Source: Amycolatopsis cihanbeyliensis
GTDB lineage: Bacteria > Actinomycetota > Actinomycetes > Mycobacteriales > Pseudonocardiaceae
Assembly: GCF_006715045.1 (NCBI RefSeq)
Contig: NZ_VFML01000001.1
Span: 1,518,501 to 1,582,500, forward strand
Length of the DNA: 64,000 nucleotides
Direction of reading: 5' to 3'
Part shown: in pieces, positions 7,768-32,837 of the stretch
How positions within the stretch are numbered: the first letter of the stretch is position 1
Layout: the number at the start of each line of letters is the position of its first letter
The notes under the pieces: model-generated
The model's database searches: none
The model's input: only the letters and a program-made list of their open reading frames with translations
Told to the model about the DNA's origin: nothing
Made by a program: the position numbers and the translations under genes

Positions 7768-8094
7768 ATGAAAGGCAACTCGGTATCGACAATGAACGAT
7801 GAAAACGCGAATATTCGCCTTGCCGAAATTCGACAGAGGCTCGATGGAATCGACCGCCGGATTGCCGAGAGCGTCGGCGACCGGTTCGAGGCAGTCAGGC
7901 AGGTCGGTGAATTGAAGCGCGCGACTGGCATCCCCATGATGCAGAAGGGTCGAGTGGACGCCGTCGTCTCCCGGGCTACCCAGTTCGAGGCCGACTACAA
8001 CATTCCAGCAGGGACGCTAACTGCCATCTTTTCGACGCTCGTCGCGGAGGCCTGTCGACTCGAGGACGGGATCATCGGCCAGGATTCCGAGTAG
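7768..8094 (+). CDS. papB: AroQ-type chorismate mutase, likely 4-amino-4-deoxychorismate mutase
   Basis: This short all-helical AroQ protein (about 108 residues) shows the expected basic active-site residues in IRQRLDGIDRRI, DRFEAVRQVGELKR and KGRVDAVV. It lies directly upstream of a papA and a papC homologue in one transcription unit, as in pristinamycin and chloramphenicol loci. Family knowledge therefore predicts Claisen rearrangement of 4-amino-4-deoxychorismate to 4-amino-4-deoxyprephenate. In-frame starts are possible at 7768 and 7792; the GCGGGA before 7768 favours that one. It is 19 bases upstream of papA. A housekeeping chorismate mutase role is less likely from context. Confidence 0.85.
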   Translation: MKGNSVSTMNDENANIRLAEIRQRLDGIDRRIAESVGDRFEAVRQVGELKRATGIPMMQKGRVDAVVSRATQFEADYNIPAGTLTAIFSTLVAEACRLEDGIIGQDSE

Positions 8095-8113
8095 CTTCCA
8101 TGGGGGAAAGATT

Positions 8114-10192
8114 GTGAAGACGCTCATCGTCGACAACTACGACTCATTCACGTACAATCTGGCACATTTGGTCGGACAGGTACGGGGTGTCGATCCCATC
8201 GTCGTCCAGAACAATGTTTCCTGGGCGTCCATCCCGTGGAGCGAAGTCGACAACGTCGTGATCTCGCCTGGGCCGGGGAAACCCAACCGCCCGGAGGACT
8301 TCGGGATCTGCGCGGAAATCATCGCCCGGTGCGAGCTCCCGATCCTCGGTGTCTGTCTGGGGCACCAGGGAATCTGCAAGTTCGCGGGGGCAAGAGTCGC
8401 CCCCGCTCCCGTGCCGATGCATGGGAGCGGGTCCCTCATTCAGCACGACGGGGTGGGGTTGTTCGCGGGGATCCCCAGCCCCTTTATTGCTATTCGCTAT
8501 CACTCTCTCGCAGCCGATGATATCCCCGACACTCTCAGGGTCACCGCGACGTCCGAGGACGGTGTTGTGATGGCCGTCGAGCACGTATCTCGACCCATCT
8601 GGGGCGTGCAGTTCCACCCGGAATCGATCTGTACGGAGTACGGTCGAGAGATCATCGTGAACTTCTGTCGGCTGACGGAGTCGTGGGCCGACCGGCCTCG
8701 CGTAGAAGCCAACTCCGGCCCCCGCTTTACCATCAATCTCCGGCGAGTTCCGAAGATGCCCGATCCCGACACGATCTTCTCCGAGCTGTTCACGGAGTCC
8801 ACGTACAGCTTCTGGCTGGACAGCGGAGGGCCCGCAACCGATCACCGGGCCAGGTTCAGCATCCTCGGCGACGCGGCAGGCCCCCTCGCCGAGGTAGTTG
8901 AGTACGACGTCGAGAAGTCCGAGCTAACGAGCCTTCGCCATGGACGGCGGCACGTGCTCAAGACATCAATCTTTGAGTACCTCGCGGACCGGTGCGCGGA
9001 GGTTGCGCCAGCAAGCTCCCATGGCCTCGACTTGGAGTTCGAGCTCGGGTTCGTGGGCTTCCTCGGGTATGAGATGAAGGCGGAGACGGGCGGCTCGTTG
9101 ACCCACCGGAACGCCATACCCGATGCGGCCTTCGTCTTTGCGGACCGAGCGGTCGTCCACGACGCTCGCGACGGGTCCGGCTGGCTGCTCGCCCTGAGCT
9201 GTGACGGGGCGCCGGACGCCAGCCCCGGGGCCGTCGCGCGATGGCTCGACCAGACAGCCGATCGGTTGCAGCGCATGACGCCGCGCGTTCGTTCCGATGC
9301 GCTACCCGACGAGGGCCTGAACGGTGTGGGCAGAGTGGAGATGCGGCACGACTACCGCGCGTATCTGTCGAGGATCGAACGCACCCTGGAACTCATCCGC
9401 TCCGGTGAGACGTACGAGCTGTGCCTAACCAACGAAGGCTCAGTGACGACGGACGCCGATCCCGTGACCCTCTACGAAGAGACCCGCCGGCTGAACCCAG
9501 CGCCTTTTGGGGCACTCCTCCGCTTCGGGACTCTGTCAGTGCTGAGTGCGTCGCCCGAACGCTTCATGTCCGTCACAGGCGACGGGAGCGTGGAGTCGCG
9601 ACCGATCAAGGGGACGCGGCCGCGCAGCGAGGACCCGGTGGAGGACGAGCGAATTCGCGCGAGGCTCCAGGCGAGCAAGAAAGACCGGGCAGAAAACCTG
9701 ATGATTGTCGACCTAGTCCGAAACGACCTCTCGCGGGTGTGCGAGGTCGGATCGGTCCACGTCCCCGCTCTGTTCGATGTCGAGACGTTCGCGACGGTGC
9801 ATCAGCTCGTGTCGACAGTGGCTGGACAGCTGAGCCCAGGGATGACGGCGATTGACGCCGTCCGCGCAGCGTTCCCCGGCGGTTCGATGACCGGCGCCCC
9901 GAAGCTCCGGACGATGGAGCTGATCGACGAGCTTGAGGGTGGGCCGCGGGGGGTCTACTCTGGCGCCCTCGGGTGGTTCTCCTTGACGGGTGCCTGCGAT
10001 CTGAGCATCGTCATCAGGACAATCACCATGAACGGCCCAGACGCCACGTTCGGAACCGGCGGAGCTATCCTCGCGCTGTCCGACCCCGAAGAGGAGTGGG
10101 AAGAAACGCGGGTGAAGTCAACGGTGATGTGTTCGGTCCTCGAGAGTTTGGCGCGTCACCGGTGCAGCACGCCAGAGCCAGCGCCGCGGTGA
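8114..10192 (+). CDS. papA: 4-amino-4-deoxychorismate synthase, fused glutaminase and synthase (PapA)
   Basis: This 692-residue fusion has an N-terminal class I glutamine amidotransferase (about 1-190, nucleophile in ILGVCLGHQG, histidine/glutamate in VQFHPES) and a C-terminal chorismate-binding domain (about 210-680). In the latter, RPIKGTRPR carries the lysine typical of aminodeoxychorismate synthases, where anthranilate synthases have alanine. PGGSMTGAPK and the C-terminal GTGGAI motif are also present. The reaction is chorismate plus glutamine to 4-amino-4-deoxychorismate. The GTG start follows a strong GGGGGAAAG ribosome site. The stop overlaps papC. It commits the locus to para-amino aromatic building blocks. 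Confidence 0.93.
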   Translation: MKTLIVDNYDSFTYNLAHLVGQVRGVDPIVVQNNVSWASIPWSEVDNVVISPGPGKPNRPEDFGICAEIIARCELPILGVCLGHQGICKFAGARVAPAPVPMHGSGSLIQHDGVGLFAGIPSPFIAIRYHSLAADDIPDTLRVTATSEDGVVMAVEHVSRPIWGVQFHPESICTEYGREIIVNFCRLTESWADRPRVEANSGPRFTINLRRVPKMPDPDTIFSELFTESTYSFWLDSGGPATDHRARFSILGDAAGPLAEVVEYDVEKSELTSLRHGRRHVLKTSIFEYLADRCAEVAPASSHGLDLEFELGFVGFLGYEMKAETGGSLTHRNAIPDAAFVFADRAVVHDARDGSGWLLALSCDGAPDASPGAVARWLDQTADRLQRMTPRVRSDALPDEGLNGVGRVEMRHDYRAYLSRIERTLELIRSGETYELCLTNEGSVTTDADPVTLYEETRRLNPAPFGALLRFGTLSVLSASPERFMSVTGDGSVESRPIKGTRPRSEDPVEDERIRARLQASKKDRAENLMIVDLVRNDLSRVCEVGSVHVPALFDVETFATVHQLVSTVAGQLSPGMTAIDAVRAAFPGGSMTGAPKLRTMELIDELEGGPRGVYSGALGWFSLTGACDLSIVIRTITMNGPDATFGTGGAILALSDPEEEWEETRVKSTVMCSVLESLARHRCSTPEPAPR

Positions 10193-11106
10193 CGCCTACA
10201 ATGAGTGGCGCGGACGCCATTTTCGACCACGTGGTAGTCCTTGGCGGCGGGGCTGTCGGGATGCTCGTCGTGGAGACGTTGCGGGGTCGATCGTCGCGAA
10301 CGACGGTGGTTGACCTGGATCCGGCGTTCGGCGTCTCGCCGGGCGACGGGCTAGAATGCGTGGTCGCGGACGTCACCTCTCAAGACGATCTGCCCGCTTG
10401 GGTGGCGCCCCTGCGCGAGGCGTCGGTCATCGTACTCAGCCTGCCGGAGACCGTCGTCAAGACGGTGTTGCTCACCCTTGCGACACATGCCTCCAAGCGC
10501 GCCCTCGTCGTCGAGACCTGCTCGGTGAAAGCAGACGTGGCGGCGGCGCTAGGGACCTTCTGGAGCGGTCGACCCGCCCTCGGGATCAACCCGCTGTTCC
10601 GGCCGTCACTCGGGATCGACGGTCGACGCGTCGCCATTGTCTCATACGAGCGTGGAGGACACGCCGAGTCGGTCGAGGAGGCATTGTCCTCGAAGGGGGC
10701 GCTGCTCGTCCGGCTCGGCGCGGCGGAACACGACCGGCTCGCCGCCATCACCCAGGCGCTTGCCCACGCCTCCTTACTCGTCTTCGGCGTGGCCGTGGCT
10801 GAGTGCCGCACCGAGGTGTCCGTCGACGACCTCATGGGCATGGCGCCACCACCGTTCCGCGCTCTGCTATCCCTATCCGCGCGTGTGGCTGCCGGCGACG
10901 TCGCGGTTTACCGAGCGATCCAGGATGCCCCGGGGGGGCATCGGATACGTACCCTAATGACGAATGCGTTGGCCGATCTTGACCGGGCGGTGAGTACCGA
11001 CGCGGGCTTCGAAGGTCTCCAGACGAAGATCCGGGACGCGATCGGACCGACTCTCGTCGCCGAGCTCGTCGACACATCCGACGCGCTGCTGTCCGGGCTG
11101 AGGTGA
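10189..11106 (+). CDS. papC: Prephenate dehydrogenase-like enzyme (PapC), 4-amino-4-deoxyprephenate dehydrogenase
   Basis: The protein opens with a Rossmann dinucleotide motif (HVVVLGGGAVGMLVVETL) and continues as a TyrA-type dehydrogenase. SVKADVAAALGTF and GINPLFRPSLG occupy the places of the family's substrate-binding loop. With papB and papA upstream, it should oxidatively decarboxylate 4-amino-4-deoxyprephenate to 4-aminophenylpyruvate using NAD+. The GTG at 10189 overlaps the papA stop (GTGA), supporting translational coupling; an ATG at 10201 is an alternative. It ends 66 bases from a convergent hydrolase gene. Confidence 0.88.
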   Translation: MTPTMSGADAIFDHVVVLGGGAVGMLVVETLRGRSSRTTVVDLDPAFGVSPGDGLECVVADVTSQDDLPAWVAPLREASVIVLSLPETVVKTVLLTLATHASKRALVVETCSVKADVAAALGTFWSGRPALGINPLFRPSLGIDGRRVAIVSYERGGHAESVEEALSSKGALLVRLGAAEHDRLAAITQALAHASLLVFGVAVAECRTEVSVDDLMGMAPPPFRALLSLSARVAAGDVAVYRAIQDAPGGHRIRTLMTNALADLDRAVSTDAGFEGLQTKIRDAIGPTLVAELVDTSDALLSGLR

Positions 11107-11172
11107 GTCGTGCCCAGTCATTTCTTTCGACCGCTCCCGCCGAGTGACCCAGCCACATGGACGCGACAACGG

Positions 11173-12387: not shown

Positions 12388-12412
12388 ATTTCCTCCTCAT
12401 TGTCGACGGTCC

Positions 12413-14722: not shown

Positions 14723-14762
14723 GGAACAACCAGGTCGCCGTTGGACCGGACGTGCACGCGGA

Positions 14763-17549: not shown

Positions 17550-17712
17550 TCGTATCGGTTGCAGGTCGCGCCGATTCTCATCACGAGCCGATGGCAGTCG
17601 TGACTACATGGCGGTGGGCGATCCCAGCCGCTTTCGGAGCGACCGTGACTGTCGTCGACTTCCTCCTCGCCGCTCGAGATGGCGTGTCTGGGCCATGGCT
17701 TTCTAACTCACC
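17550..17712 (+). repeat. Inverted repeat, arm A (partner at 25392-25560)
   Basis: About 150 bases match the reverse complement of 25392-25560 with scattered mismatches. Shared stretches include GCCGATGGCAGTCGTGACTA and AGCCGCTTTCGGAGCGACCG. In both arms the same frame encodes a related peptide that starts MAVVTT and continues AAFGATVTVVD. The arms enclose the ATP-grasp, ThDP, quinone reductase, heme oxygenase and VOC genes. Confidence 0.8.
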
Positions 17713-17971
17713 CTGGCGACACCTCATTAACCTGGGCTGCAATCGCCGGCGTCGCCCTCCCGTCCTAAGTCATGACGATCGCCGCGCAGAATGTGCCTAC
17801 GTCGCGATTATTAGTTCGTTCGGCTATCAAGGACCATAGCGAAGCTCGATGGGTGTCCGGTCTCGGTAGCGTCCTCGCGGCACCGCGCCTCACTGGAGGC
17901 GCATGTGGAGACCCATCGGCGGTGGTGTCATCGTAGGCATTCGGCGTCGTGTATCTGGAAATTGCTGCAGG

Positions 17972-18180: not shown

Positions 18181-18675
18181 CTAGCGAATGCATTCGCGAC
18201 CACCGTCTTCAAGGTAGTAATTGCTTGGATACAACACTTGGCCGCCGTGTCCTTCGCAATCTCGATTTGACGAATCATTTCCACGGTGCCATCCGCGGAT
18301 TGCGGTAGCGCGGTCGCCGTCCCGAGGCAACATCGCGCGAGCAGCGGACTCAGCATCGGGCGGGTCGTCCTTGCTATGCAGGTAGCGTAGACGACGGCCG
18401 GGACGGTTCACCGTGCTCACGACGCGCCTCACATGACTGTCACGGAATTCAACCATATAGGCCGGACACCAATGCCCGAGAGCACCCAGTGATCCATCCT
18501 CGAAACCGTCGACACCAGCGCGATTGATAGCAGGCGGGACGTCAACCGTCGAACCAGTCGAAACCGCTGCTGGGATAGCCATCGCGAGGCCGTCTGCAGC
18601 CCTCGCGAGAAATGTCGTGATCAGACCCTCGGCATTTCCTAGGAATAAGAAACGGTTCCTCAACGCGCGGGCCAT
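18181..18675 (-). CDS. Hypothetical protein of 164 residues, overlapping the ATP-grasp gene
   Basis: This open frame starts with an ATG 16 bases inside the end of the ATP-grasp gene, as in translationally coupled pairs, and ends about 180 bases before the hairpin at 17972. The N-terminal 60 residues are fairly hydrophobic (FLFLGNAEGLITTFLARAADG) and the rest is polar, ending in an Asn/Gly/Asp-rich tail. No known family was recognised. It could be a small partner of the ATP-grasp enzyme or a decayed gene; position is the only support. Confidence 0.35.
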   Translation of the reverse strand: MARALRNRFLFLGNAEGLITTFLARAADGLAMAIPAAVSTGSTVDVPPAINRAGVDGFEDGSLGALGHWCPAYMVEFRDSHVRRVVSTVNRPGRRLRYLHSKDDPPDAESAARAMLPRDGDRATAIRGWHRGNDSSNRDCEGHGGQVLYPSNYYLEDGGRECIR

Positions 18676-19991
18676 ACAGCGCAGTTCAGCAGGACCGATG
18701 GCACGGACCGCGTCAGCACCTCAGCCCCGGGCAGGCCCACCGTATCGTACCGGACTTGGCAACCGCTGGCGACGCCGCCGACCAGCACGGGTCCGAACAC
18801 CGAGGGAGCCATGATCCTGCTGGCCTCTCCACCGTCCGAATCAGCGACCTCAACCGGCACCCCTAGCGAGTGCACACGTTCTTGGACGACCCACGTCCCC
18901 GCTGCGACCGCGTTCTCCACCAGCACGTTCCACACGGTCGCGTCGGTGCTCGACCCGAAGTGCACGTTGTTGCCCTGGCTGCCGTCCGAACGCTTGAGCA
19001 CGAAGCGGTCCCGCTGGGCCTGCACCAGATCCACTAGAGAACGACGTCGGCTCTTGTAGAGCACTGGCCCGTCGTACACCTCACGCGTCCAGGGTACATA
19101 CCGCTCGACGAACTCCGCGTCGGCTGGCTCCAGCCACTCAGGCCCCGTTGACAGCCGCGCCAAGGCCCGCTTGTTGCTGACGTGCTCTGCGCTGTATGGC
19201 GACACCACGATCCGCCCGGGGTCCAGCAGACTCACCGCTGGAGCGAGGTCGCGCCCAGCATCCAGCAAATCCTGCGCGACGAACTCATGCAAGACAAGCG
19301 GTGCCGGAGCGTGCCCGCCCGCGAGGCTATCGGTGTAGTCCTCGATCCCGATCAACTCGGCCTCGAAGCCAGCACGACGCAGATCGTCGACCCCGAGCTC
19401 GTAGTACCAGGAGTCATTCTTGATGTCCCTCGTGCACCCAACGAGGTCCATCACCTTGGGCTTATCGAACTGCGTCGCGGTTGCCGCGAGCATTGCCGAT
19501 CGGTCGCGCAGTGGCGATCGGATGCGGAGATCGGGTGATATGCGGTCCCGCCAGAACTCGTTTAGCAGGTGGACATAGCCCGTGCCGCCGACGGCGCTGC
19601 TGACGTTCATTTCGATGAACTGCCATCCGTCTGTAGTGAGGATGGCGTCGGGTCGCGCGAGGATCGTCGCGCAGGCCGACTCCAGAGAAGGGTCCTGGTA
19701 CAGCGGCACGAGGCGGTCGTCGAGACCGAGATCGTCGTGGCGGGCCCTCGGATTCTCACTTATCTCGAAGACTGTACGACGGAGAAGGCGCAGTAGTCGC
19801 TCGCTAGCGCGGTCCAGGTCGTTTCCCAGCTCCGCAGACAATGTGACCGGGCCGGTCGGAAGGTAGGGCTCCGAGTGGAGGCCGATCTTGTCGAAGTAGC
19901 GTCGCATGTCCGCTACGAGTCGGCGATTTTCCGTCACCGGATGAGAGTAACTACACCCCTGGGCCTGTGCCGAGACCTTCGTCGCCAACAT
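18660..19991 (-). CDS. ATP-grasp-fold ligase of the circularly permuted / glutathionylspermidine-synthase-like type
   Basis: This protein of about 443 residues has ATP-grasp features: an N-terminal acidic/asparagine motif (WQFIEMNVSSAVGGTGY), a lysine strand RFVLKRSDGSQGNNV that resembles the ATP-binding loop, and a late WVVQERV strand. Such enzymes join a carboxylate to an amine or thiol through an acyl-phosphate. The ATG at 19991 overlaps the ThDP gene by 41 bases; a second ATG at 19907 is possible. Tight coupling to the ThDP enzyme suggests consecutive steps. Its substrates are not predictable, and the exact subfamily is uncertain. Confidence 0.65.
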   Translation of the reverse strand: MLATKVSAQAQGCSYSHPVTENRRLVADMRRYFDKIGLHSEPYLPTGPVTLSAELGNDLDRASERLLRLLRRTVFEISENPRARHDDLGLDDRLVPLYQDPSLESACATILARPDAILTTDGWQFIEMNVSSAVGGTGYVHLLNEFWRDRISPDLRIRSPLRDRSAMLAATATQFDKPKVMDLVGCTRDIKNDSWYYELGVDDLRRAGFEAELIGIEDYTDSLAGGHAPAPLVLHEFVAQDLLDAGRDLAPAVSLLDPGRIVVSPYSAEHVSNKRALARLSTGPEWLEPADAEFVERYVPWTREVYDGPVLYKSRRRSLVDLVQAQRDRFVLKRSDGSQGNNVHFGSSTDATVWNVLVENAVAAGTWVVQERVHSLGVPVEVADSDGGEASRIMAPSVFGPVLVGGVASGCQVRYDTVGLPGAEVLTRSVPSVLLNCAVWPAR

Positions 19992-21625: not shown

Positions 21626-22591
21626 TCAGGGAATGAGCAGAAGTTTGCCGCTGGAGGCGCGACCTTCGAGGTCCTGGTGAGCCCGGCACGCATCGGCGAG
21701 TGGGTAACGGCCCCCGATGCACACCCGAATCTCGTTCGAACTCACCCAGCCAAGCACACTTGTCGCCCGCCACAGCAGCTCCTCCCTGTCGTGTAGGTAA
21801 GCCGGGATCAGCGTGGGTCGGGTAATGAAGAGGCCCTTGGCTCGCAGGCGCATCGGGTCGACGGGCGGTACCGGCCCGCTGGCTGCGCCGTACAGCACCA
21901 GCAGCCCGCGAGTCCTCAAACTGCGAAGGCTCCCGTCGACTGTGGCCCGTCCTACGCCGTCGTACACCACCGGCACGCCATCACCGTTCGTGAGCTCGCG
22001 AACGGTCCGGTCGAAGCCCTCGTACGGGATCACCTCGTCGGCACCGGCCTCGCGAGCGAGCCGTTCCTTCTCTGGGGTGGATACCGTCCCGATCACCCGG
22101 CCGCCGCGCATCTTGACCATCTGCACCAGGAGTAGCCCCGTACCCCCTGCGGCCGCATGGACTAACACGCTGTCGCCCGGTCGCACCACGTAAGTGGAGT
22201 GTGTCAGGTAGTGGGCAGTCATCCCCTGGAGCAGACTCGCGGCGGCCGTGTCCATCGCCATCCCCTGAGGGACGCAGACGGCGCGGTCAGCGGGGATCAC
22301 CGCGAGCGTGCTGTAAGAGCCGAGGACACCGCTGGCCCACGCGACGGTGTCACCCGACGAGACACCGTTGACGCCCGTGCCGCAAGCCCGGACCGTGCCC
22401 GCGCCCTCGCGTCCCGGTACGAAGGGCACGGGGACGTCGTACGTCCCCTTCCGCTGGTACACGTCGATGAAGTTGACCCCACTGGCCGCGACCTCGACTA
22501 GCAGCTCTCCTGCGCCGACAATCGGGTCGGGAAGTTCACGGTAGTTCATAACCCCCGGATCGCCCGGCCGATCGACCACGATCGAGAACAT
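21626..22591 (-). CDS. Zinc-independent quinone oxidoreductase (MDR family)
   Basis: This protein of about 321 residues belongs to the QOR-type medium-chain reductases: GREGAGTVRACGTGVNG early, VLVHAAAGGTGLLLVQMVK as the NADPH-binding Rossmann motif, and VVYDGVGRATVDGSL later. The catalytic-zinc cysteine/histidine set is absent, as in quinone or enone reductases. The ATG at 22591 has a good ribosome site (AGAGGA); an upstream ATG at 22636 does not. It may reduce a quinone or an enone in the pathway. Confidence 0.85.
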   Translation of the reverse strand: MFSIVVDRPGDPGVMNYRELPDPIVGAGELLVEVAASGVNFIDVYQRKGTYDVPVPFVPGREGAGTVRACGTGVNGVSSGDTVAWASGVLGSYSTLAVIPADRAVCVPQGMAMDTAAASLLQGMTAHYLTHSTYVVRPGDSVLVHAAAGGTGLLLVQMVKMRGGRVIGTVSTPEKERLAREAGADEVIPYEGFDRTVRELTNGDGVPVVYDGVGRATVDGSLRSLRTRGLLVLYGAASGPVPPVDPMRLRAKGLFITRPTLIPAYLHDREELLWRATSVLGWVSSNEIRVCIGGRYPLADACRAHQDLEGRASSGKLLLIP

Positions 22592-22682
22592 CAGTTCCTC
22601 TCTGACGCGGGACCATCCGTCGGACGTGTCCGTCATCTGTTTCTCTGCATGAAGTTCAGAGCCGGGCCCGGACGGTGCCGAG

Positions 22683-23651
22683 TCACTCGGACGCGGACAG
22701 ACACTTGGCCGAATTGCCCAGTGTCGCCGCGTGTGCGACGTCTGCGATCACCTGCCCGAATCGATCCTCGCACTCGACGGCCGAGGGGCGGACTGACTCG
22801 CCGACACTGCATGCGATGTTCCTACCGTGCGGGTACAGACCATGCCGTGCAACATCAATCAACGCTGGACGGATTCTGTGGAGGAGCTGTGCGATCAGCG
22901 CGTCGACGTCAATGGTTGACCGCAGCGTCATGAAGAAGTTGTCGTACAGCAGCGCGGTCCGCGGCGATAGACCCACCGGGGACTCCTCAGCCGCGTGCTG
23001 CAACAATGAACGCCCGTCGGGGACCAACCAAGCAGCCACATCGTCATGGACCTCCCGGTTTATCTTTATCGCCTGCGCGACGTCCGCAGCGCGCGTCTCC
23101 ACCGAGTCGGCTACTGCACCGCTGCGGAAGAATCTGCGCACAGGCGCGTAGTCAGGCGCCCACTTTCCGCTGAAACCAGGGTGCTGATCGTACATCCGCG
23201 GCCGGATCAACGAGTGGTAGATTTCCCGCGGACACGACGCCGTGTAGACGAGCATCGCGCTGTACCCGTCGATGTACGTCTGGAGCACGGTCGCCTCTCC
23301 GTCGTCGAGGCAATGCAACGACCTGCCGTTCAACAAGTTTCCCATAAATCGCCAAATGAGGAATGTGATCTGATGACCGGTGATCCACCGGAACCAGAAG
23401 AGCCCCTCGGCCGAGGGCCCGGCGTCAGCCGACACGAGTCCGGGACCGCCCTTAGACAAGATCCGGACCTGCGATAATGCAAAATGCGGGTCGCAATCTG
23501 GGAGGACCGGAGGCGGTTTCGGGAACACTGCGGCCGCGTGGCCTGCAGGAGGCAGGACCAGAAACTCCAGGCCGTAGGGAAAGTCGCCGAACTCCCAGCG
23601 AATGGCGCCAAGGTCCGACTTGGCCGCCCTGACCGTACCGCCGGGATTCAT
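22683..23651 (-). CDS. Putative histidine-ligated heme aromatic oxygenase (LmbB2/SfmD-like tyrosine hydroxylase)
   Basis: This 322-residue protein is not securely assigned. The segment FRWITGHQITFLIWRFMGN resembles the HQxxxLW helix of tryptophan dioxygenase and its relatives. HPGFSGKWAPDYAPVRRFF matches what I recall of the bacterial tyrosine 3-hydroxylase group (LmbB2, SfmD). It overlaps the upstream VOC gene by four bases (ATGA). In lincomycin, hormaomycin and pyrrolobenzodiazepine loci such a hydroxylase works with a ring-cleaving VOC dioxygenase, which supports the call. Substrate here could be tyrosine or 4-aminophenylalanine. The proximal heme histidine was not identified. Confidence 0.5.
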   Translation of the reverse strand: MNPGGTVRAAKSDLGAIRWEFGDFPYGLEFLVLPPAGHAAAVFPKPPPVLPDCDPHFALSQVRILSKGGPGLVSADAGPSAEGLFWFRWITGHQITFLIWRFMGNLLNGRSLHCLDDGEATVLQTYIDGYSAMLVYTASCPREIYHSLIRPRMYDQHPGFSGKWAPDYAPVRRFFRSGAVADSVETRAADVAQAIKINREVHDDVAAWLVPDGRSLLQHAAEESPVGLSPRTALLYDNFFMTLRSTIDVDALIAQLLHRIRPALIDVARHGLYPHGRNIACSVGESVRPSAVECEDRFGQVIADVAHAATLGNSAKCLSASE

Positions 23652-24115
23652 CGAGTGCCCTCCGGCATGTAGCTGATCTCGTACTCGAGGCCATTGACAT
23701 CGTAGACGTACAGACTCTGCACACCCTCGTCGTCCACGACGATCTCCGTCGGTTGCTCAGTAGATGCGAATGAGAACCTCCCCGATTCGTAGAGTTCGAT
23801 CCACTTGCTCCGCATCTCGCCGAGCTCCTCCGGCGACGACACCGACACGCACACATGCTGGAAGATGAATCCATTCGGATCCGGCTGCATCTCGCTGTGG
23901 CCTGCTCGATCGAACAGGTGGATACGCACGTCACCAGCTGAAATCTCTACCAACCGACGAATACCGGGAAGCCGACGCTGGGTGAGCTCGGAGAAGTGGT
24001 CGAGCTGCCACTCTTTTTGGGCGCCGAAGAACTCGAGGTACCACTCCAGGCAGTTGTCTATATCTGTGGTCTGGACTCCGAGGTGATGAAGTTTCATTCC
24101 TGCTGAACGAGGCAT
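23648..24115 (-). CDS. VOC-fold metalloprotein, possible extradiol dioxygenase (LmbB1-like)
   Basis: This 155-residue single-chain vicinal oxygen chelate protein has candidate metal ligands at the usual places: histidine in MKLHHLGVQTTD, histidine in FIFQHVCVSVSS, and glutamate in NGLEYEISYMP. The start at 24115 has a good GGAAAGGA site. It overlaps the putative aromatic hydroxylase by four bases, so both should be made together. In 4-alkylproline pathways the matching enzyme opens L-DOPA at the 2,3 bond. Epimerase, lyase or resistance functions are also known in this fold, so the reaction is inferred from context. Confidence 0.65.
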   Translation of the reverse strand: MPRSAGMKLHHLGVQTTDIDNCLEWYLEFFGAQKEWQLDHFSELTQRRLPGIRRLVEISAGDVRIHLFDRAGHSEMQPDPNGFIFQHVCVSVSSPEELGEMRSKWIELYESGRFSFASTEQPTEIVVDDEGVQSLYVYDVNGLEYEISYMPEGTR

Positions 24116-24297
24116 CGAGCAATCCTTTCCAGGGTCTTCTCAGTCGTGTGTTAGCAGCAACGCAGAAGGCCCATCGACTTCGCGCGAACTCATAATCGCG
24201 ACCTAGGTACATTCAGCGCGGCGATCGTCATGACTTACGACGGGAGGGCGATGCCGGCGATTGCAGCCACGGTTAAATGAGGTGCCGCCAGGCGGGC

Positions 24298-25389
24298 GGT
24301 GTCAAGTGGTGGGTGCACCACCGGCTTCTATTAGTAGTTTGTTGAATACTTCGGTGGGGTTGTAGCCGTCTAGTGTTCCTCGGGGTCGATCGTTGAGCCT
24401 GTCCGCGATCGCGTCGAGTTCGGTGTGGGTGCAGACCGAGGGGTCGGTTCCTTTGGCGAAGTATTGGCGCAGGAGTCCGTTGGCGTTCTCGTTGGCGCCA
24501 CGTTGCCATGGTGAGTATGGATCGCAGAAATAGACGATGATTCCGGTTTTCACTGAGAATCTCGCGTGCGCGGCCATCTCTTTACCTTGGTCCCAGGTGA
24601 CGATGGTGCGCATGAGCTCGGGGAGGGTTTCCATTTTTCGGGCGAGTAGGCCCGCGACACGGTCGGCTGTGCGATCGTAGGGATTGCGCACGAGTATGAC
24701 GTAACGGCTTGCGCGTTCGACTAGCGTTGCGATCTGAGATTTGTTGCCTTGCCCAGGATAAGGTCACGCTCCCACGCTCCAGGGATAGCTCTGTCGGCGA
24801 CCTCGGCCGGACGCTCGCTGACGTTGACCATGTCCTTGACGGTACCCTTGGCCACCGCGGGCCGGGCGCGAAGAACCCGACTCATACGGCCTTGACGCAG
24901 GACGATCCGCAGCTGAGTCCTCAACTCTCCACGTCCCTGGAGATACAGCAACTGGTACATCGTCTCATCCGACACCCACATAGTGTCATCGTCCGGGACG
25001 TCCTTACGCAAGCGGATACTGATCTGTCGCGGGGGACCATTCCTTCTTCAATCCGTCATTCACCACGTCATGAAACGCCGTGTTCAACTCCAGTAATCGC
25101 GGCTTGGGTCGCGAACGACACACATTTGCCCGATCCTGCGCCTCAATCGCACGATAACACTCTCGCCCCACCATTCCGCTCGACCTCCCGCGAGATCACG
25201 GAATGATTCCTGCCTGGAGAACACCCAATAGTACGACATGACCGACCCCTCACCAACTCTCGAGAAATCACCTCCCGATCATGAGCACACAACTCAACAC
25301 CACCCACGAAAAAGCAAACCTCCCCAATCCAATGAACACCTAAGAAACGACATTCTATCAGTCCCTGCTCCACTCAACCCTATGACACC
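24298..25389 (-). mobile_element. IS30-family element, complete ends but degenerate transposase
   Basis: The ends read GGTGTCAAGTGGTGGGTGC at 24298 and, from the other side, GGTGTCATAGGGTTGAGTGG ending at 25389, giving a 1092-bp element of normal IS30 size. It interrupts the region between the VOC and Rieske genes. Its right end abuts arm B of the inverted repeat. The first 75 bases are repeated almost exactly at 33018-33092. Confidence 0.8.
24302..25373 (-). pseudogene. IS30-family transposase, frameshifted
   Basis: Three frames together make up the protein. An N-terminal part (from 25373) has the helix-turn-helix REVISRELVRGRSCRTIG and ISREVERNGG. A middle part lies at 24721-25011 (MWVSDETMYQLLYLQGRGEL). 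The C-terminal DDE part lies at 24302-24691, with IVTWDQGKEMAAHARFS, YFCDPYSPWQRGANENANG and RPRGTLDGYNPTEVF. Frame breaks make it inactive. Confidence 0.85.
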
Positions 25390-25391
25390 AA

Positions 25392-25560
25392 GGCGAGTTC
25401 AGAAAACCATGGTCCAGACAGGCCATCTCGAGCGTCGACGAAGACGTCGACGACAGTCACGGTCGCTCCGAAAGCGGCTGGGGTCGCCCACTGCGGTGTA
25501 GTCACGACTGCCATCGGCCCAATGATGAGAGTCGGCGCGGCGTGCAACTCCTTCAGACCG
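25392..25560 (-). repeat. Inverted repeat, arm B (partner at 17550-17712)
   Basis: This arm is the reverse complement of arm A with scattered differences, lying directly against the IS30 right end. Its minus-strand frame encodes a short related peptide (MAVVTTPQWATPAAFGATV...) that ends at the IS30 junction. No known gene family was recognised in the peptide. The rest of 25561-25748 holds nothing identifiable. Confidence 0.8.
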
Positions 25561-25748
25561 AATTAGCTAGCACGGCAGTGTCCGGCGTCGGCCAGGTGAG
25601 GGCGAGCGAGGCGCATAATGTGATCAGGCCGCAGGCTGCGTCGGCCTGACTGGCACCAACCACGTACAACCCGTCGAGGACCGCCGCGAAGCGCGCGTGT
25701 TATCCTACCATGCTCGTCATCTCCGGATGACGCAGTGATTGCGATCTG

Positions 25749-26105
25749 TTACGAAGGAGCAGTACCCGGGGGCAGATTCGGCGCTTCCTCAGACAGTGTT
25801 ACCCAGACCTCACTGTTGACGACCTTGGCCTTGTGTACTCGCACAGGCAGTGCTGCAGGTGGAGCGTCAACCATTCCGGTGCGCAGATCAAATCGGGACA
25901 TGTGCAACGGACACTCCACGATGCAGTCATCGACCCACCCGTCCGACAACGCGGCATCCTGATGGGTGCAACTGTCGTCGAGCACGTGCACCGCCCCATC
26001 CACGGTAAGGAAGACCGCAAGGGGTGGTGCCACCGACGTGACCCTGTAGCCCTTGTCCGTAGAAAGGTCGGATATTTCACAGACCTTGATCGGATCGCCA
26101 GCCAT
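25749..26105 (-). CDS. Rieske-type [2Fe-2S] ferredoxin
   Basis: This protein of about 118 residues has the two Rieske ligand pairs: CTHQDAAL (CxH) and CPLHMSRFDL (CxxH), with the usual spacing. The start at 26105 (MAGDPIKVCEISD) follows AGGAGAAAG. It resembles NirD/bphA3-type Rieske ferredoxins that feed electrons to oxygenases. It is the last gene of the P450, aminotransferase, GTP cyclohydrolase group and may supply an oxygenase in the locus. No ferredoxin reductase is seen. Confidence 0.9.
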   Translation of the reverse strand: MAGDPIKVCEISDLSTDKGYRVTSVAPPLAVFLTVDGAVHVLDDSCTHQDAALSDGWVDDCIVECPLHMSRFDLRTGMVDAPPAALPVRVHKAKVVNSEVWVTLSEEAPNLPPGTAPS

Positions 26106-26251
26106 ATTCTTTCTCCTCATGAATTGAGTCGGCGAGCCCCAGCACGATCGCCGGGCCCCGGCGGCCGACTAATGCATCTCGTGCCGCCCCGCCCCCAAAC
26201 GACTGCTCTGACGGGCCGTTCACGTCGACCGAGGCATCGAACGGGATCACC

Positions 26252-26836: not shown

Positions 26837-26897
26837 TTCGTTCCAATCCGTTTCGGAAACGCACCATCGGCGCCGATACGCTCGTACCGAGCCTGTC

Positions 26898-27929
26898 CTA
26901 CCGGCTCAAATCGAACCGATGAGAACGCGACATGATCGCCGAATACGAGTCATCTGCTTCTGGGAAACGCTCCGTCACCAAAGAGTACTGCTTCTCCACC
27001 CGGCTCCACGCGCTAGACACTTTCCCGTCAAGCTCGTAGTCGCTGGAGCCCAGTCGCAACAGGGCCACTCTACGGATGCCGAGCGCGGTAGACGTCGTGA
27101 ACATATTCAGGCGCTCTCCCCGTGCAAGCGCGTCGGCCACCTCCGAAATACAGACGTCTCGTTGGACCACCCGCTCGCCCATCGCTGCCAGCAAGTCCAG
27201 GACGGTCCTGCGGGTGACACCGGGCAAAATCGAGCCAAGCTTCGGCGTGACGAGCTGCCCGCCTAGACATAAGAAGACGTTCATGGTCGTGCATTCCTGA
27301 AGGTGACCGTCGCCGTCAACCCACAGAATCGTATCGTATCCCGCCTCGCGGGCGTTCTGCGTCGCTAGCGCTGCGCTTGTGTAGTTGCCGGCGGTCTTGA
27401 CACTCGCGAACATCGGAATAGTTCGCGGCATGCTCTGCTCGACGAGGACACTCAAGCTCTCTAGCGCGAGATCGAACCCCTTCACGAGGACAGCGAAGAC
27501 GTACTTGCGAATCTGTTGCGGCATAATATCGCCACCGGCCGCAAATACGACAGGTCTGAGGTAAAGACGTGTCACGCAGCCGTCCCAATTGGCCCGCACT
27601 GCTTGTTCGATGGCCTCTATGAACACATCGAACGCCGGACACGGCAGTGCAAGCGCTGTGCATGAGTTCTTCAACCTCTTGTAGTGGTCGTGTGCCCTGA
27701 AGACAAGGAAGGTATGAGTCGCGACATAGGCGCGCATCCCTTCGAAGACCGAAAATCCGAACTGAATCCCGTCCGCACTAAACTCGGCCAAGCCACCCAC
27801 ATCGTTCGATGTCAGCGTGGGCCTCTCGTACCAGGTGTTGTCGCCGACGCATAGGGACACCGCGACCGACGGTAGCCACGAGTGTTCGACCCCCCACCCC
27901 GTGCTGGCCTTTTCATTCTGAAATGACAT
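26898..27929 (-). CDS. Class IV PLP aminotransferase (branched-chain aminotransferase type)
   Basis: This protein of about 343 residues is a fold type IV aminotransferase. FGFSVFEGMRAYVATHTFLVF matches the family N-terminal domain, VKTAGNYTSAALATQNAREAG contains the PLP lysine, and CTTMNVFLCL the later signature. With 4-aminophenylpyruvate made by papBAC, it could form 4-aminophenylalanine, or act on another 2-oxoacid. An ATG at 27929 lies next to the P450 stop; a GTG at 27953 inside the P450 is an alternative. It lies 61 bases before the GTP cyclohydrolase gene. Confidence 0.85.
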   Translation of the reverse strand: MSFQNEKASTGWGVEHSWLPSVAVSLCVGDNTWYERPTLTSNDVGGLAEFSADGIQFGFSVFEGMRAYVATHTFLVFRAHDHYKRLKNSCTALALPCPAFDVFIEAIEQAVRANWDGCVTRLYLRPVVFAAGGDIMPQQIRKYVFAVLVKGFDLALESLSVLVEQSMPRTIPMFASVKTAGNYTSAALATQNAREAGYDTILWVDGDGHLQECTTMNVFLCLGGQLVTPKLGSILPGVTRRTVLDLLAAMGERVVQRDVCISEVADALARGERLNMFTTSTALGIRRVALLRLGSSDYELDGKVSSAWSRVEKQYSLVTERFPEADDSYSAIMSRSHRFDLSR

Positions 27930-27931
27930 GG

Positions 27932-29416
27932 CTAGGAAAGAAGGACAGGACAAGAGCCCGCGGTCGCGGCACTGCGCACCGCGCTGGGATCGATCACGAC
28001 CGTGAGCTGAGAGTGCGAGAGGTTGTTGAAGTGGACGTCCTTATCTGTGGTGTTGGTGATCTGGGCTTCCGGGTAAGCCGTGATAAACTGCTTGACAAAG
28101 TTCCTGGCTACAGCTATGCCTAGATTGCGACCAGGGCAGCTGCGCCGCCCCTTGCCGAACGGCATCATGTACGGCTCGGGCTCCTCCGCCTCTGGCAAGA
28201 ATCGCTCGGGTTTGAAGGCGTCTCCGTACTTAGCGTGAAGCGCGTGAATGTTGGGCATCACTCGAGTACCCTTCTTTAACCGGTACTTCCGTCCCTCGAC
28301 GTCCATGTCGAAGTCTTCGACGACCTTGTTGTTGATGACCGATCCAGGGGGGCTAAGGCGAAGTGATTCGCTAACACACGCTTCGATCAACTGATCCCTC
28401 CGCTGGCCACTTCTCGACACGATCGCCTCCCGCCACTCCGCGTTCCGCGGAAGGAGCACATACCACAAGGTGGCTAGGATGGTGTTCTGGACCGTGTCCA
28501 AGCCTGCGATGGAAGCCGTCAGAAGGTCATCCCGCGTGATCTCGATAGGTATAGCAAGCTTCCCATTGCCCGCGGCGACCTGCTCCCACACCGTCTCCGG
28601 TTCTGGAGTTCCTTGCAACACGTCAGCCAGGTGCTCGTGCAGCTTCTTGCAATTGTATTGCAGACGCCTCGCTTCGCGGGTGATCGGCCAGGTCGCTATC
28701 GGGAAGTGGACTCGGTTCCAGAATCGGTTTGAGTAGAACCGTAGGCGCGTGAACGTCTCGTTCAACGCGAACATGAATGGAACATCCGACACTTCGCCAT
28801 CGCGGTCCTTGTACGAAACGATCCGCCTCCCCGCGTCCTTTCCCCAGACGAACTCGCCCATGACCTCACGGGTGTAGTCACCCACAATACGCTTCAGATC
28901 GAGTGGAGCGTCCCTAATGAACTCGCTACAAAAATCAGCTGCTCGCCGATTAGAGATCACAGAGATCCGTTCTAGGTCCAAACCCTTCCCGAGGTTTCGC
29001 TTCCGGCCGCCGAAGTGATCTGTGGTGATCTTCTGGAACGTAATTGCCGACGGCGACAGCTGCCCAAACGAGTATAGTGCGGGAGTATCCCGGTCGATGT
29101 GCTTTCCGGTGATCGTCGGGCTGACAAGGATCTCCGCCGTCTGCCTGTTCATACCATATAACTGGATATCGAACCCGCGAATACTGCCAACGAGGTCTGT
29201 TGCCGGCTGGTCTAGGTACAGGTAGTCCCGCGTCTTGTTCCGCTCAAGGAGCTCCGACACATCCGTCTCGGAGCCAATGAACGGGTAGGTCTTACTGAAT
29301 ACGACACCCTGCTTCTCGTATGACCTGCGGTCGAGCACCGTTCGCATCACCCTCGCGGCGTACACAGCTGAGGCGACACCAACAACTGCCATCGGTACGG
29401 ACAGGAAAGGACCCAT
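27932..29416 (-). CDS. Cytochrome P450 with an N-terminal membrane anchor
   Basis: This 494-residue P450 shows FGKGRRSCPGRNLG (heme cysteine), ESLRLSP (ExxR) and IAGLDTVQNT (I-helix). Unlike most bacterial P450s it begins with a hydrophobic helix (LSVPMAVVGVASAVYAARVM) followed by basic residues, and it is about 90 residues longer than its neighbour at 45230. The layout recalls membrane-bound eukaryote-like P450s. The start follows GGGGAA. It leads the group P450, aminotransferase, GTP cyclohydrolase II-like and Rieske. Substrate unknown. Confidence 0.88.
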   Translation of the reverse strand: MGPFLSVPMAVVGVASAVYAARVMRTVLDRRSYEKQGVVFSKTYPFIGSETDVSELLERNKTRDYLYLDQPATDLVGSIRGFDIQLYGMNRQTAEILVSPTITGKHIDRDTPALYSFGQLSPSAITFQKITTDHFGGRKRNLGKGLDLERISVISNRRAADFCSEFIRDAPLDLKRIVGDYTREVMGEFVWGKDAGRRIVSYKDRDGEVSDVPFMFALNETFTRLRFYSNRFWNRVHFPIATWPITREARRLQYNCKKLHEHLADVLQGTPEPETVWEQVAAGNGKLAIPIEITRDDLLTASIAGLDTVQNTILATLWYVLLPRNAEWREAIVSRSGQRRDQLIEACVSESLRLSPPGSVINNKVVEDFDMDVEGRKYRLKKGTRVMPNIHALHAKYGDAFKPERFLPEAEEPEPYMMPFGKGRRSCPGRNLGIAVARNFVKQFITAYPEAQITNTTDKDVHFNNLSHSQLTVVIDPSAVRSAATAGSCPVLLS

Positions 29417-31440: not shown

Positions 31441-31538
31441 CGGGCAGGTGTTCGTCCAACCCTGGCCAGCCGGCATTCAGGCGGTGGCCTGCAGTAGCCG
31501 GCTGGCGCCCGGGCCGACGACGTCGAACGAGGAGACGT

Positions 31539-32837
31539 CTACAACTCAAGCTGGTTGAGGAGCGAGGACGCCTCAGGCGTACCCGCGGTGATGACCCGAC
31601 GGCCCCTTTTCATATCCCCACGCTCCAAACTTCCCTGCGGGATGGTCGCCGCCCGGACCGCGATCCCGAGACGCGCGGCAAGCGCGGCCTCGACCTCGTA
31701 CCGGGCCTCACGGTCCATGCCAGCCGACTCGCATGCGACGACTGCGCGAGAACCGTGCTCGGACAGTACGACGATGAATTCGCCCGACAGATGCGGCGAC
31801 GCAAAGACGACCTCCTCGATGTCGCGGGGGAAAATGTTGACGCCGTTGATGATCACCATGTCGTCCAGTCGTCCCTGGATCCGACTGATGCGTGCAAAAG
31901 TCCTCCTGCACGGGCACAGATGATGCGACACCGACGCCAAATCTCCTGTGCGGTACCGAAGGACTGGCTTCGCCTCCTTCGACAGCGTGGTTAGGACAAC
32001 TTCCCCGGTCACCCCGTCCGCGCATTCCTTCCCGGTGGTCGGATCGATGACCTCTAGGAGGAAATGGTCCTCATTGACGTGCAGGCCGGCTCTCTCACGA
32101 CATTCTCCGGCGACACCGGGGCCGGTCACCTCGGACAAGCCGTACAAGTCGAAGGCGCACAATCCGAGACCGGTCTCCAACGCCCCGCGCATCTCCTCGC
32201 TGAATGTCTCGGCACCGAAGACCCCTACGCAGAGGTTCATGGACTCGCGCGGATCCATCCCTGTGACTTTTAGGTACTCGAGAATCCGGGACGCATAGGT
32301 CGGGGTGCACGCCAGCGTGTCGATTTGCATGTCGCGCATGAGCCGCACCAGCCGGGCCATCGGGCCGAGTCCGAGCGGGACAACTGAGGCTCCAACGCAC
32401 CCCAACCCGTAGTGGTAACCGAGCCCACCAGTGAACAGGCCATAGCCATAGGCATTTGCGACGATGCTCTTCTCGCTGATCCCCGCCGATACTAGGAGCC
32501 GCGCACACAGTGCACCCCAGGTCTTGATGTCTCGTCGGGTGTACGGGATTAGCGTCTCGCGCCCGCCCGTTCCGCTTGAACCGTGCCACTCGACGATCTC
32601 GTCGACCAGGGTTTCTGCAACCTGGTACCTGTCAACGACGTCGTCCTTGGTCGTGAAGGGTAAGCGTTTCAGTGTGTTCAGATCGACATCCTCACCGGAT
32701 GTGAGGCCGAGGCTTCTGAGTCGCGGACGGTCATTTGGCGATACCAAGAGTCGATCTATCAGATTTCGCAGTCTGCTCAGCTGTAGATTTCGAAGACGCT
32801 CGCGGTTGAGAGTCTCCATCATTTCGTCGAACACCAT
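31539..32837 (-). CDS. Phenylacetate-CoA ligase-like adenylate-forming enzyme (PaaK family)
   Basis: This protein of about 432 residues follows the PaaK pattern: a short N-terminal helical part with LRNLIDRLL, SSGTGGRETLIPYTRRD as the P-loop, DLYGLSEVTGPGVAGEC, VLRYRTGDLASV, and a C-terminal domain with GRLDDMVIINGVNIFPRDIEE. Family members activate arylacetates or other aryl acids to CoA thioesters. The ATG at 32837 follows GGGGGA. IS remnants separate it from the P450 operon. If the ThDP enzyme and molybdenum hydroxylase make an arylacetate, this would be the activating step. Confidence 0.85.
   Translation of the reverse strand: MVFDEMMETLNRERLRNLQLSRLRNLIDRLLVSPNDRPRLRSLGLTSGEDVDLNTLKRLPFTTKDDVVDRYQVAETLVDEIVEWHGSSGTGGRETLIPYTRRDIKTWGALCARLLVSAGISEKSIVANAYGYGLFTGGLGYHYGLGCVGASVVPLGLGPMARLVRLMRDMQIDTLACTPTYASRILEYLKVTGMDPRESMNLCVGVFGAETFSEEMRGALETGLGLCAFDLYGLSEVTGPGVAGECRERAGLHVNEDHFLLEVIDPTTGKECADGVTGEVVLTTLSKEAKPVLRYRTGDLASVSHHLCPCRRTFARISRIQGRLDDMVIINGVNIFPRDIEEVVFASPHLSGEFIVVLSEHGSRAVVACESAGMDREARYEVEAALAARLGIAVRAATIPQGSLERGDMKRGRRVITAGTPEASSLLNQLEL

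What the first reader, a model, noticed from the sequence alone, without database searches (positions are those of the whole stretch)
7768..32837. Undescribed-looking pathway from a papBAC supply of 4-aminophenylpyruvate
papB, papA (with PIKGT, the aminodeoxychorismate signature) and papC are textbook. What follows is not the usual chloramphenicol, pristinamycin or obafluorin set: molybdenum hydroxylase subunits, a ThDP decarboxylase-type enzyme, an ATP-grasp ligase, a putative heme hydroxylase plus VOC protein, a divergent GTP cyclohydrolase II, a Rieske protein, an anchored P450 and an aryl-CoA ligase. I do not recognise a known cluster with this content.
Basis: partly seen in the sequence, partly recalled or inferred. 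Interest (0 to 1): 0.85.

Follow-up and report, generated by a model that had tools for sequence, protein, structure and literature searches.

The report
Capuramycin-type antibiotic cluster with papBAC
The papBAC genes sit inside a gene cluster for a capuramycin-type antibiotic (a nucleoside that blocks bacterial cell-wall synthesis), apparently to supply a new aromatic-amine tail; the other unusual genes look like pieces of different pathways brought in beside it by mobile DNA.

Summary
It lies in a capuramycin-type nucleoside (MraY-inhibitor) cluster that starts upstream of the window. Between genome positions about 1,500,650 and 1,551,445 there is a counterpart for each of the 16 genes shared by the three described capuramycin clusters (capM apparently frameshifted). 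The window holds capP, W, J, S, I, an Fe-S subunit and K; capA, C-H and cap15 lie just left of it. A sister cluster on a Streptomyces sp. NBC_00467 plasmid carries the same papBAC, ligase, ThDP enzyme and carrier protein (59-82% identity). Best reading: papBAC supplies a 4-aminophenyl tail, joined by CapS/CapW-type ATP-independent amidation, in place of the PABA-plus-ketosynthase route proposed for A-102395. The 18-29 kb block (TyrH/L-DOPA dioxygenase; P450-aminotransferase-GCHII-like-Rieske) has no match in the sister cluster, is bounded by IS remnants, and its halves occur elsewhere without papBAC, so one pathway over 7.7-33 kb is not supported. I found no description of the GCHII-like cassette, conserved in five other actinobacterial loci. 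Product, activity and expression are untested.

The parts
5753..6658 (-). APH-family kinase, capP/cpr17 counterpart (capuramycin 3''-phosphotransferase, self-resistance)
   Evidence: Pfam APH; 77% to the L009 copy; flanked by two 99% identical inverted IS copies
7723..8094 (+). papB, 4-amino-4-deoxychorismate mutase type
   Evidence: Pfam CM_2; 80% to L009
8114..10192 (+). papA, fused aminodeoxychorismate synthase
   Evidence: 82% to L009; next best plasmid record 51%
10177..11106 (+). papC, 4-amino-4-deoxyprephenate dehydrogenase type (ORF opens at 9973; the homologous part starts near 10177)
   Evidence: Pfam PDH_N; 73% to L009
11173..12387 (-). capW/cpr51 counterpart, beta-lactamase-fold transacylase
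   Evidence: Pfam Beta-lactamase; 76% to L009, 71% to L119, 60% to L010
12413..14731 (-). capJ/cpr28 counterpart, 'CO dehydrogenase' molybdopterin subunit (start placed by homology)
   Evidence: Pfam MoCoBD_1/2; 83% to L009
14763..15566 (-). capS/cpr27 counterpart, carboxyl methyltransferase
   Evidence: Pfam Methyltransf_11; 78% to L009
15591..15872 (-). capI/cpr26 counterpart, MazG-like (Table 1: putative pyrophosphatase)
   Evidence: Pfam MazG-like, 26.8 bits against a cut-off of 27; 84% to L009
15919..16479 (-). capL/capM-type [2Fe-2S] subunit
   Evidence: Pfam Fer2_2; 84% to L009
16476..17255 (-). capK/cpr29 counterpart, FkbM O-methyltransferase
   Evidence: Pfam FkbM; 72% to S. griseus D1MWT6 and 68% to the Amycolatopsis sp. 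SANK 60206 protein, both named Putative O-methyltransferase
17558..17818 (.). IS remnant, inverted match (88-91%) to two pieces of 24185-25548
18660..20009 (-). block B1: possible ATP-grasp-like ligase (weak)
   Evidence: below-cut-off ATP-grasp matches in 4 of 4 scanned homologs
19951..21591 (-). block B1: ThDP enzyme of the PRK07586 / benzoylformate decarboxylase group
21626..22636 (-). block B1: quinone oxidoreductase-type dehydrogenase
   Evidence: Pfam ADH_zinc_N; NCBIfam NADPH:quinone reductase group, below cut-off
22683..23651 (-). block B1: heme tyrosine hydroxylase family (LmbB2/TyrH)
   Evidence: His93 and His202 align with His88 and His196 of the S. sclerotialus protein P0233; the role of those His is recalled
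23648..24115 (-). block B1: L-DOPA extradiol dioxygenase family (VOC, LmbB1 type)
24185..25548 (.). IS remnants, including an integrase-core (rve) fragment, by eye IS30-like
   Evidence: Pfam rve below cut-off
25749..26120 (-). block B2: Rieske ferredoxin
   Evidence: 85% to L012
26252..26836 (-). block B2: GTP cyclohydrolase II-like; three Zn Cys and Arg128 kept, Tyr105 replaced by Ala
26898..27953 (-). block B2: class IV aminotransferase (BCAT-like)
   Evidence: 78% to L012
27932..29416 (-). block B2: P450 with an N-terminal hydrophobic segment (by eye)
   Evidence: 80% to L012
31539..32945 (-). PaaK-like aryl-acid ligase belonging to the papBAC module
   Evidence: 77% to the L009 copy that lies next to capK; only 1 of 310 plasmid records above 60%

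Best explanation
The interval is the right-hand part of a capuramycin-type nucleoside-antibiotic cluster of an unnamed actinomycete (probably a Streptomyces relative), spanning about G000:C1:1,500,650-1,551,445 and broken up by insertion sequences. Core (homology to described enzymes; activity here inferred): the capA counterpart oxidises UMP to uridine-5'-aldehyde, capH adds the glycyl unit from threonine, cap15 makes the uridine carboxamide, the capC/E/F/G and CO-dehydrogenase-type genes are thought to supply and attach the unsaturated uronate, capK O-methylates, and capP phosphorylates the product for self-protection. Tail (inferred): PapA, PapB and PapC make 4-aminophenylpyruvate; the upstream ThDP enzyme and carrier protein and the PaaK-like ligase convert and activate it; CapS methylates the uronate carboxyl and CapW exchanges the methyl ester for the aromatic amine without ATP. 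The 18-29 kb block is probably not part of this product: it looks like two transplanted pieces, TyrH/L-DOPA dioxygenase with a ThDP enzyme, a quinone oxidoreductase and a possible ATP-grasp ligase, and a P450-aminotransferase-GCHII-like-Rieske cassette. The stated confidence is for the capuramycin-type identity with a papBAC-fed arylamine tail; the individual tail steps are less certain (about 0.5).
For: A counterpart for each of the 16 genes that PMC6384614 Table 1 lists for all three described clusters, assigned by family, order and described role; the cap15 counterpart is SelA-related and the capH counterpart SHMT-related, as the review describes. capH, capE and cap15 counterparts lie at 1,513,168, 1,508,459 and 1,510,821, directly left of the window. 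The window capK counterpart is 68% identical to a protein of Amycolatopsis sp. SANK 60206, the A-102395 producer, and 72% to one of S. griseus. Sister cluster L009 has papBAC-capW-capJ-capS-capI-FeS-capK-ligase in one run, plus the same ThDP enzyme (77%) and carrier (59%). dN/dS against L009 is 0.15-0.40 for 21 of 21 genes compared, with no internal stop in the 21 copies here. A third cluster (G243) has the cap core with an ADC synthase 50% identical to papA but no papB or papC hit at 1e-8 in 57 kb. None of the nine block B genes matches L009 at E<=1e-2; IS remnants flank the block.
Against: capM (G000:C1:1,500,653-1,501,468) is only 47-49% identical and its match runs in two frames, so it may be broken; the 49.6 kb of L009 also show no capM hit. 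Of the exporter pair of L009, one survives only as a fragment (111 of 621 residues, 50%) and the other has no hit at 1e-60 in the genome (150 of 186 candidates scored). The L009 condensation-domain protein has no close homolog here: the best-scoring of 11 hits is 27% over part of the protein. IS elements split the cluster into four segments, so it may be silent. No sequence shows which amine CapW uses. Only capK was compared with proteins from named producers; the capG counterpart has no Pfam match, and which of the two dioxygenases is capA and which capD is inferred.
Confidence: 0.8

Rival explanations
1. One integrated new pathway: block B acts on papBAC-derived 4-aminophenylalanine (class IV aminotransferase makes it, TyrH hydroxylates it, the VOC dioxygenase opens the o-aminophenol ring) to give an unusual tail.
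For: The nine block B genes are open and point the same way between capK and the ligase. TyrH is divergent (72% to one metagenome protein, next 54%), which allows a changed substrate.
Against: No block B match in L009. The P450-AT-GCHII-Rieske cassette occurs in 5 of the 8 GCHII loci examined (of 64 found), without papA, papB or papC hits in those 5. VOC-TyrH pairs occur in 6 of 6 fetched loci beside other gene sets, without papB or papC; 2 of the 6 (L125, L128) show a 28% match to the amidotransferase part of papA only. IS remnants bound both halves.
Confidence: 0.12
2. The capuramycin-type cluster is a relic (compatible with its identity, rival to its function): IS insertions, a damaged capM and loss of the exporter have silenced it, and nothing is made.
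For: IS copies split the cluster; exporter remnant; capM match in two frames; no exporter partner found in the genome.
Against: 20 of 21 genes compared with L009 have dN/dS at or below 0.34 (papC 0.40) and none of the 21 has an internal stop. L009 also shows no capM hit. Recent damage would not yet show in dN/dS.
Confidence: 0.35
3. Block B1 is a fragment of a 4-alkylproline (pyrrolobenzodiazepine or lincosamide) pathway.
For: VOC is next to TyrH in 6 of 6 fetched loci. Their recurring neighbours include NRPS, a gamma-GT homolog and a UvrA-like gene (each in 5 of 6) and a luciferase-like gene (3 of 6) (names by eye from sequence).
Against: I compared 11 representatives of 9 of the 11 recurring families with the window and three flanks: only VOC and TyrH find a specific match; the other hits (one in the window, two in L141) are partial matches of 28-58% over 38-104 residues, and the two upstream stretches have none.
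Confidence: 0.2

Closest known systems
A-102395 cluster, Amycolatopsis sp. SANK 60206 (capuramycin type; cpr genes, KP995196)
   Same: Shared core (cpr17-31, cpr51); an ADC synthase (Cpr38) feeding an arylamine tail thought to be joined by Cpr27/Cpr51 (PMC6384614: Table 1, section 5 part 1, section 8; PMC8037709: passages)
   Different: Its tail is proposed to go through PABA (Cpr12), ketosynthase/CLF, ketoreductase and a luciferase-like monooxygenase. Here papB and papC sit beside papA, with a ThDP enzyme, carrier and PaaK-like ligase.
A-500359 / A-503083 clusters (capuramycin)
   Same: CapA, C-M, P, S, W and Cap15 core (PMC6384614 Table 1)
   Different: Their tail is aminocaprolactam made from lysine by the CapU NRPS; no ADC synthase is mentioned in what I read
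Chloramphenicol and dnacin B1 papABC modules
   Same: Three-gene route from chorismate to 4-aminophenylpyruvate (dnacin: PMC7570522 abstract and passages; chloramphenicol recalled)
   Different: Joined to NRPS scaffolds; no nucleoside core
LmbB2/LmbB1 (lincomycin) and pyrrolobenzodiazepine homologs
   Same: Heme tyrosine hydroxylase plus L-DOPA extradiol dioxygenase, adjacent
   Different: Of 9 recurring neighbour families tested, only this pair is here
GTP cyclohydrolase II (RibA)
   Same: Zn cysteines 54/65/67 and Arg128 kept in 21 of 21 aligned relatives
   Different: Tyr105 is Ala and Tyr88 is Trp in 21 of 21; stand-alone and linked to P450, aminotransferase and Rieske genes

Membership tests
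Capuramycin-type nucleoside cluster | UMP dioxygenase (capA/cpr19), transaldolase (capH/cpr25) and PLP monooxygenase-decarboxylase (cap15/cpr23) | tested here: met
   counterparts 76%, 83% and 83% to L009 copies, at G000:C1:1,505,591, 1,513,168 and 1,510,821; SHMT and SelA relatives as described; activity untested
Capuramycin-type nucleoside cluster | Sugar genes capC, capE, capF, glycosyltransferase capG, dioxygenase capD | tested here: met
   counterparts 78%, 83%, 80%, 79% and 81% to L009 copies; capG assigned by order only (no Pfam match)
Capuramycin-type nucleoside cluster | Carboxyl methyltransferase capS plus transacylase capW | tested here: met
   window 14763-15566 and 11173-12387
Capuramycin-type nucleoside cluster | O-methyltransferase capK related to producers' proteins | tested here: met
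   68% to Amycolatopsis sp. SANK 60206, 72% to S. griseus D1MWT6 (strain not shown)
Capuramycin-type nucleoside cluster | Three CO-dehydrogenase-type subunits capJ, capL, capM | tested here: inconclusive
   capJ and the Fe-S subunit open; flavoprotein subunit 47-49% and in two frames
Capuramycin-type nucleoside cluster | Phosphotransferase capP and pyrophosphatase capI | tested here: met
   77% and 84% to L009
Capuramycin-type nucleoside cluster | Product: uridine-5'-carboxamide with 4,5-dehydro-mannuronate; MraY inhibition | not testable with these tools
   needs culture and assay
A-102395 subtype | ADC synthase for an arylamine | tested here: met
   papA
A-102395 subtype | Ketosynthase/CLF extension of PABA and luciferase-like monooxygenase | tested here: inconclusive
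   none among the window ORFs scanned with Pfam; L140 was scanned only in part
papABC (4-aminophenylalanine) module | ADC synthase, mutase and dehydrogenase adjacent | tested here: met
   window 7723-11106
4-alkylproline pathway (LmbB1/B2 type) | Tyrosine hydroxylase and L-DOPA dioxygenase pair | tested here: met
4-alkylproline pathway (LmbB1/B2 type) | Gamma-GT homolog and other recurring neighbours | tested here: not met
   of 11 representatives of 9 families only the pair itself finds a specific match in the window
GTP cyclohydrolase II (riboflavin) | Catalytic residues of E. coli RibA | tested here: not met
   Tyr105 is Ala in 21 of 21; Cys54/65/67 and Arg128 kept; importance of Tyr105 is recalled

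The most novel reading that the evidence does not exclude
Two lineages of one capuramycin family swapped the PABA-plus-ketosynthase supply for papBAC; in this strain the papBAC product is further diverted by block B. TyrH hydroxylates 4-aminophenylalanine ortho to the amine, and the L-DOPA-dioxygenase relative cleaves the resulting o-aminophenol to a picolinate-type amino acid. The cassette with the Tyr105-lacking GTP cyclohydrolase II-like enzyme builds a second, undescribed unit, giving a capuramycin with a new heteroaromatic tail.
Probability: 0.1. Interest if true: 0.8.

Novelty: new variant of a known kind. Interest (0 to 1): 0.5.

Why it matters
Capuramycins inhibit MraY (translocase I) and have anti-tuberculosis activity, and the tail changes both MraY inhibition and antibacterial activity (PMC6384614, passages). 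A papBAC-fed cluster would be a second biosynthetic route to an arylamine tail and a source of new acyl acceptors for CapW-type ATP-independent amidation. The conserved P450-aminotransferase-GCHII-like-Rieske cassette (with a BtpA-family gene upstream in 4 of 5 other loci) is a testable candidate for new GTP-derived chemistry.

Tried and rejected
Gene calling by longest ORF with third-position GC is approximate; papC and capJ starts were moved inward by homology. A structure prediction of the ATP-grasp-like protein from one sequence gave mean pLDDT 34.8 and was discarded. Searching plasmids for TyrH and for the ATP-grasp-like protein found nothing; the P450 gave 12 records, the 8 listed being partial matches at 25-31%. 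The P450 was not found in the other 79 genus genomes at 1e-40. For the GCHII-like protein, only 2 of the 389 other family genomes matched at 1e-40, at 43% and 45%.

Literature: searches for the cassette, for papABC with capuramycin and for capuramycin alone gave no matching paper among the rows listed (25 of 487; 5 of 5; 30 of 218; 8 of 9; 15 of 4,312; 40 of 67; 12 of 6,757; 8 of 19). Unlisted rows were not seen, and the library lacks most subscription journals, including the 2015 A-102395 paper. Passages only were read in PMC6395733 (a citation), PMC3509567 (no named catalytic Tyr), PMC10366380 (Arg128 and the Zn cysteines) and PMC7570522; the LmbB2 paper PMC3851162 has no occurrence of my substrate terms.

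I first thought of other nucleoside families for L009, dropped once capK hit the capuramycin producers. I first took Trp85 as the lost catalytic Tyr of the GCHII-like protein; one search shows that it aligns with Tyr88, while Tyr105 aligns with Ala102. The '1 TGA' reported for cap15 is not an internal stop: the ORF is an open 375 codons. The capM check was built out of frame and is void. I considered that the molybdenum hydroxylase might act on the papBAC product; rejected because the same subunits occur in L010 and L119 without papB or papC hits in the stretches fetched. The capW search scored at most four candidates per genome, so its counts are lower bounds.

Full report
Observation. papB, papA and papC have family-level matches, as do the molybdopterin and Fe-S subunits, ThDP enzyme, aminotransferase, P450, Rieske protein and PaaK-like ligase. 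The 'heme hydroxylase' belongs to the heme-dependent tyrosine hydroxylase family (7kqr, 2.6e-63). The VOC protein is an L-DOPA extradiol dioxygenase relative (6on1, 5.8e-58). The ATP-grasp label is weakly supported.

Identification of the papBAC module. A plasmid of Streptomyces sp. NBC_00467 (L009, 49.6 kb fetched) carries the same run papB-papA-papC, serine hydrolase, Mo-hydroxylase, methyltransferase, MazG-like, Fe-S, FkbM and ligase at 73-84% protein identity. In the plasmid collection this is the only record with papA above 60% (856 records matched) and the only one with the ligase above 60% (310 matched). In L009 the ligase stands next to FkbM; in the window 14 kb separate them. Homologs of the FkbM protein include 'Putative O-methyltransferase' entries from Streptomyces griseus (D1MWT6, 72%) and from Amycolatopsis sp. 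SANK 60206 (68%), the strain that makes A-102395. A review of capuramycin biosynthesis (PMC6384614; I read its outline, Table 1, section 5 part 1, section 8 and passages) lists, as shared by the three described clusters, these kinds of genes: capP kinase, capW transacylase of the beta-lactamase fold, capJ/L/M 'CO dehydrogenase', capS carboxyl methyltransferase, capI pyrophosphatase and capK O-methyltransferase.

The missing core is next door. Counterparts of capA, C, D, E, F, 15, G and H are present in L009 and in L119 (G243) but not in the window. A search of the window's own genome placed capH, capE and cap15 at G000:C1:1,513,168, 1,508,459 and 1,510,821, within about 10 kb left of the window. 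The fetched stretch L140 holds the whole series capA-capC-capD-capE-capF-cap15-capG-capH at 76-83% to L009, plus a ThDP enzyme (77%) and a carrier protein (59-61%) that L009 also has. Counting a flavoprotein subunit at 1,500,653 (47-49%; match in two frames), each of the 16 shared capuramycin genes has a counterpart, assigned by family, order and described role; only capK was compared with proteins of named producers. Across 21 genes compared with L009, dN/dS is 0.15-0.40 and none of the 21 copies here has an internal stop. Against function: the probable capM damage, an exporter reduced to a fragment, and no close homolog of the L009 condensation-domain protein.

What papBAC probably does. In A-102395 the arylamine is proposed to come from an ADC synthase (Cpr38), a PABA-forming aminotransferase, ketosynthase extension and a luciferase-like monooxygenase, giving 3-(4-aminophenyl)-2,3-dihydroxypropanoate; a carboxyl methyltransferase and a transacylase are thought to attach the tail (PMC8037709, passages). 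The G243 cluster also has an ADC synthase, 50% identical to papA, with no papB or papC hit at 1e-8 in the 57 kb fetched; its neighbours look by eye like carrier, adenylation, condensation and luciferase-like genes (not scanned with Pfam). In the window and L009, papB and papC stand beside papA, so 4-aminophenylpyruvate, already with the C6-C3 skeleton, would be made directly. I infer that the ThDP enzyme, carrier and PaaK-like ligase process it and that CapS/CapW join its aromatic amine to the uronate. No step of this is shown.

The 18-29 kb block. None of its nine genes has a match in the fetched L009 stretch at E<=1e-2. IS remnants lie on both sides: 17558-17818 matches two pieces of 24185-25548 in inverted orientation, and 24296-24373 recurs at 33015-33092; two 99% identical inverted IS copies also flank capP. 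The scan with the GCHII-like family gave 64 loci. I examined 8 of them, and 5 (Nonomuraea, Nocardiopsaceae, two Herbidospora, Planotetraspora) have P450-aminotransferase-GCHII-like-Rieske in that order, without papA, papB or papC hits. A BtpA-family gene lies upstream in 4 of these 5, counting the locus that supplied the query, and was not found in the window or its three flanks. The GCHII-like protein keeps the zinc cysteines and Arg128 but has Ala for Tyr105 in 21 of 21 aligned relatives, its own sequence included. TyrH matched in 27 of 390 genomes at 1e-30 including the own one. I fetched 6 of the 26 others, and all 6 have VOC next to TyrH, in neighbourhoods that by eye resemble pyrrolobenzodiazepine clusters; none has papB or papC hits, and 2 show a 28% match to the amidotransferase part of papA. 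Of 9 recurring neighbour families tested, only the pair itself is in the window.

Distribution. capW homologs at 1e-90 occur in 38 of 390 family genomes, a lower bound. I fetched neighbourhoods of 4 of the 37 others, and 1 (G243) has the cap core. The capK search listed 39 other proteins at 48% identity or more; I saw the context of three relatives (L009, L010, L119), each with the cap core, so such clusters may not be rare.

Verdict. A capuramycin-type cluster with a papBAC-fed tail is a new variant of a known kind. The most open question left is the GCHII-like cassette.

Noticed in passing
window 52121-59701 (-): A separate small biosynthetic group: a P450-adenylation-carrier fusion (1034 aa), a beta-eliminating lyase fused to an O-methyltransferase (859 aa), another O-methyltransferase and an alpha/beta hydrolase.
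   Followed up: no
window 25749-29416 and L012-L016: Conserved P450-aminotransferase-GCHII-like-Rieske cassette, with BtpA upstream in 4 of 5 other loci; a BenE-type transporter (Pfam in L012) and, in Nonomuraea, extra trpB/trpA-like genes nearby (trp labels by eye).
   Followed up: partly
L140 15084-16232 (G000:C1:1,514,584-1,515,732): Amidinotransferase (best PDB SxtG and inosamine-phosphate amidinotransferase) beside capH; no hit in L009 or L119 at 1e-6.
   Followed up: partly
window 47573-50326 and 808-2019: Phage-type integrases, one with a DUF2637 protein next to it, suggesting integrated mobile elements around the cluster.
   Followed up: no
L139 2297-4157: Tandem repeat of roughly 72 bases per unit in the upstream stretch, seen in the self-comparison.
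   Followed up: no
L017-L075: GCHII-like relatives (45-56%) in Bacteroidota, Anaerolineae and other phyla, 59 of the 64 loci; contexts of only 3 of these 59 were looked at.
   Followed up: partly
window 43992-46426 (+): MAB_1171c/DUF6545-family protein followed by a cytochrome P450.
   Followed up: no
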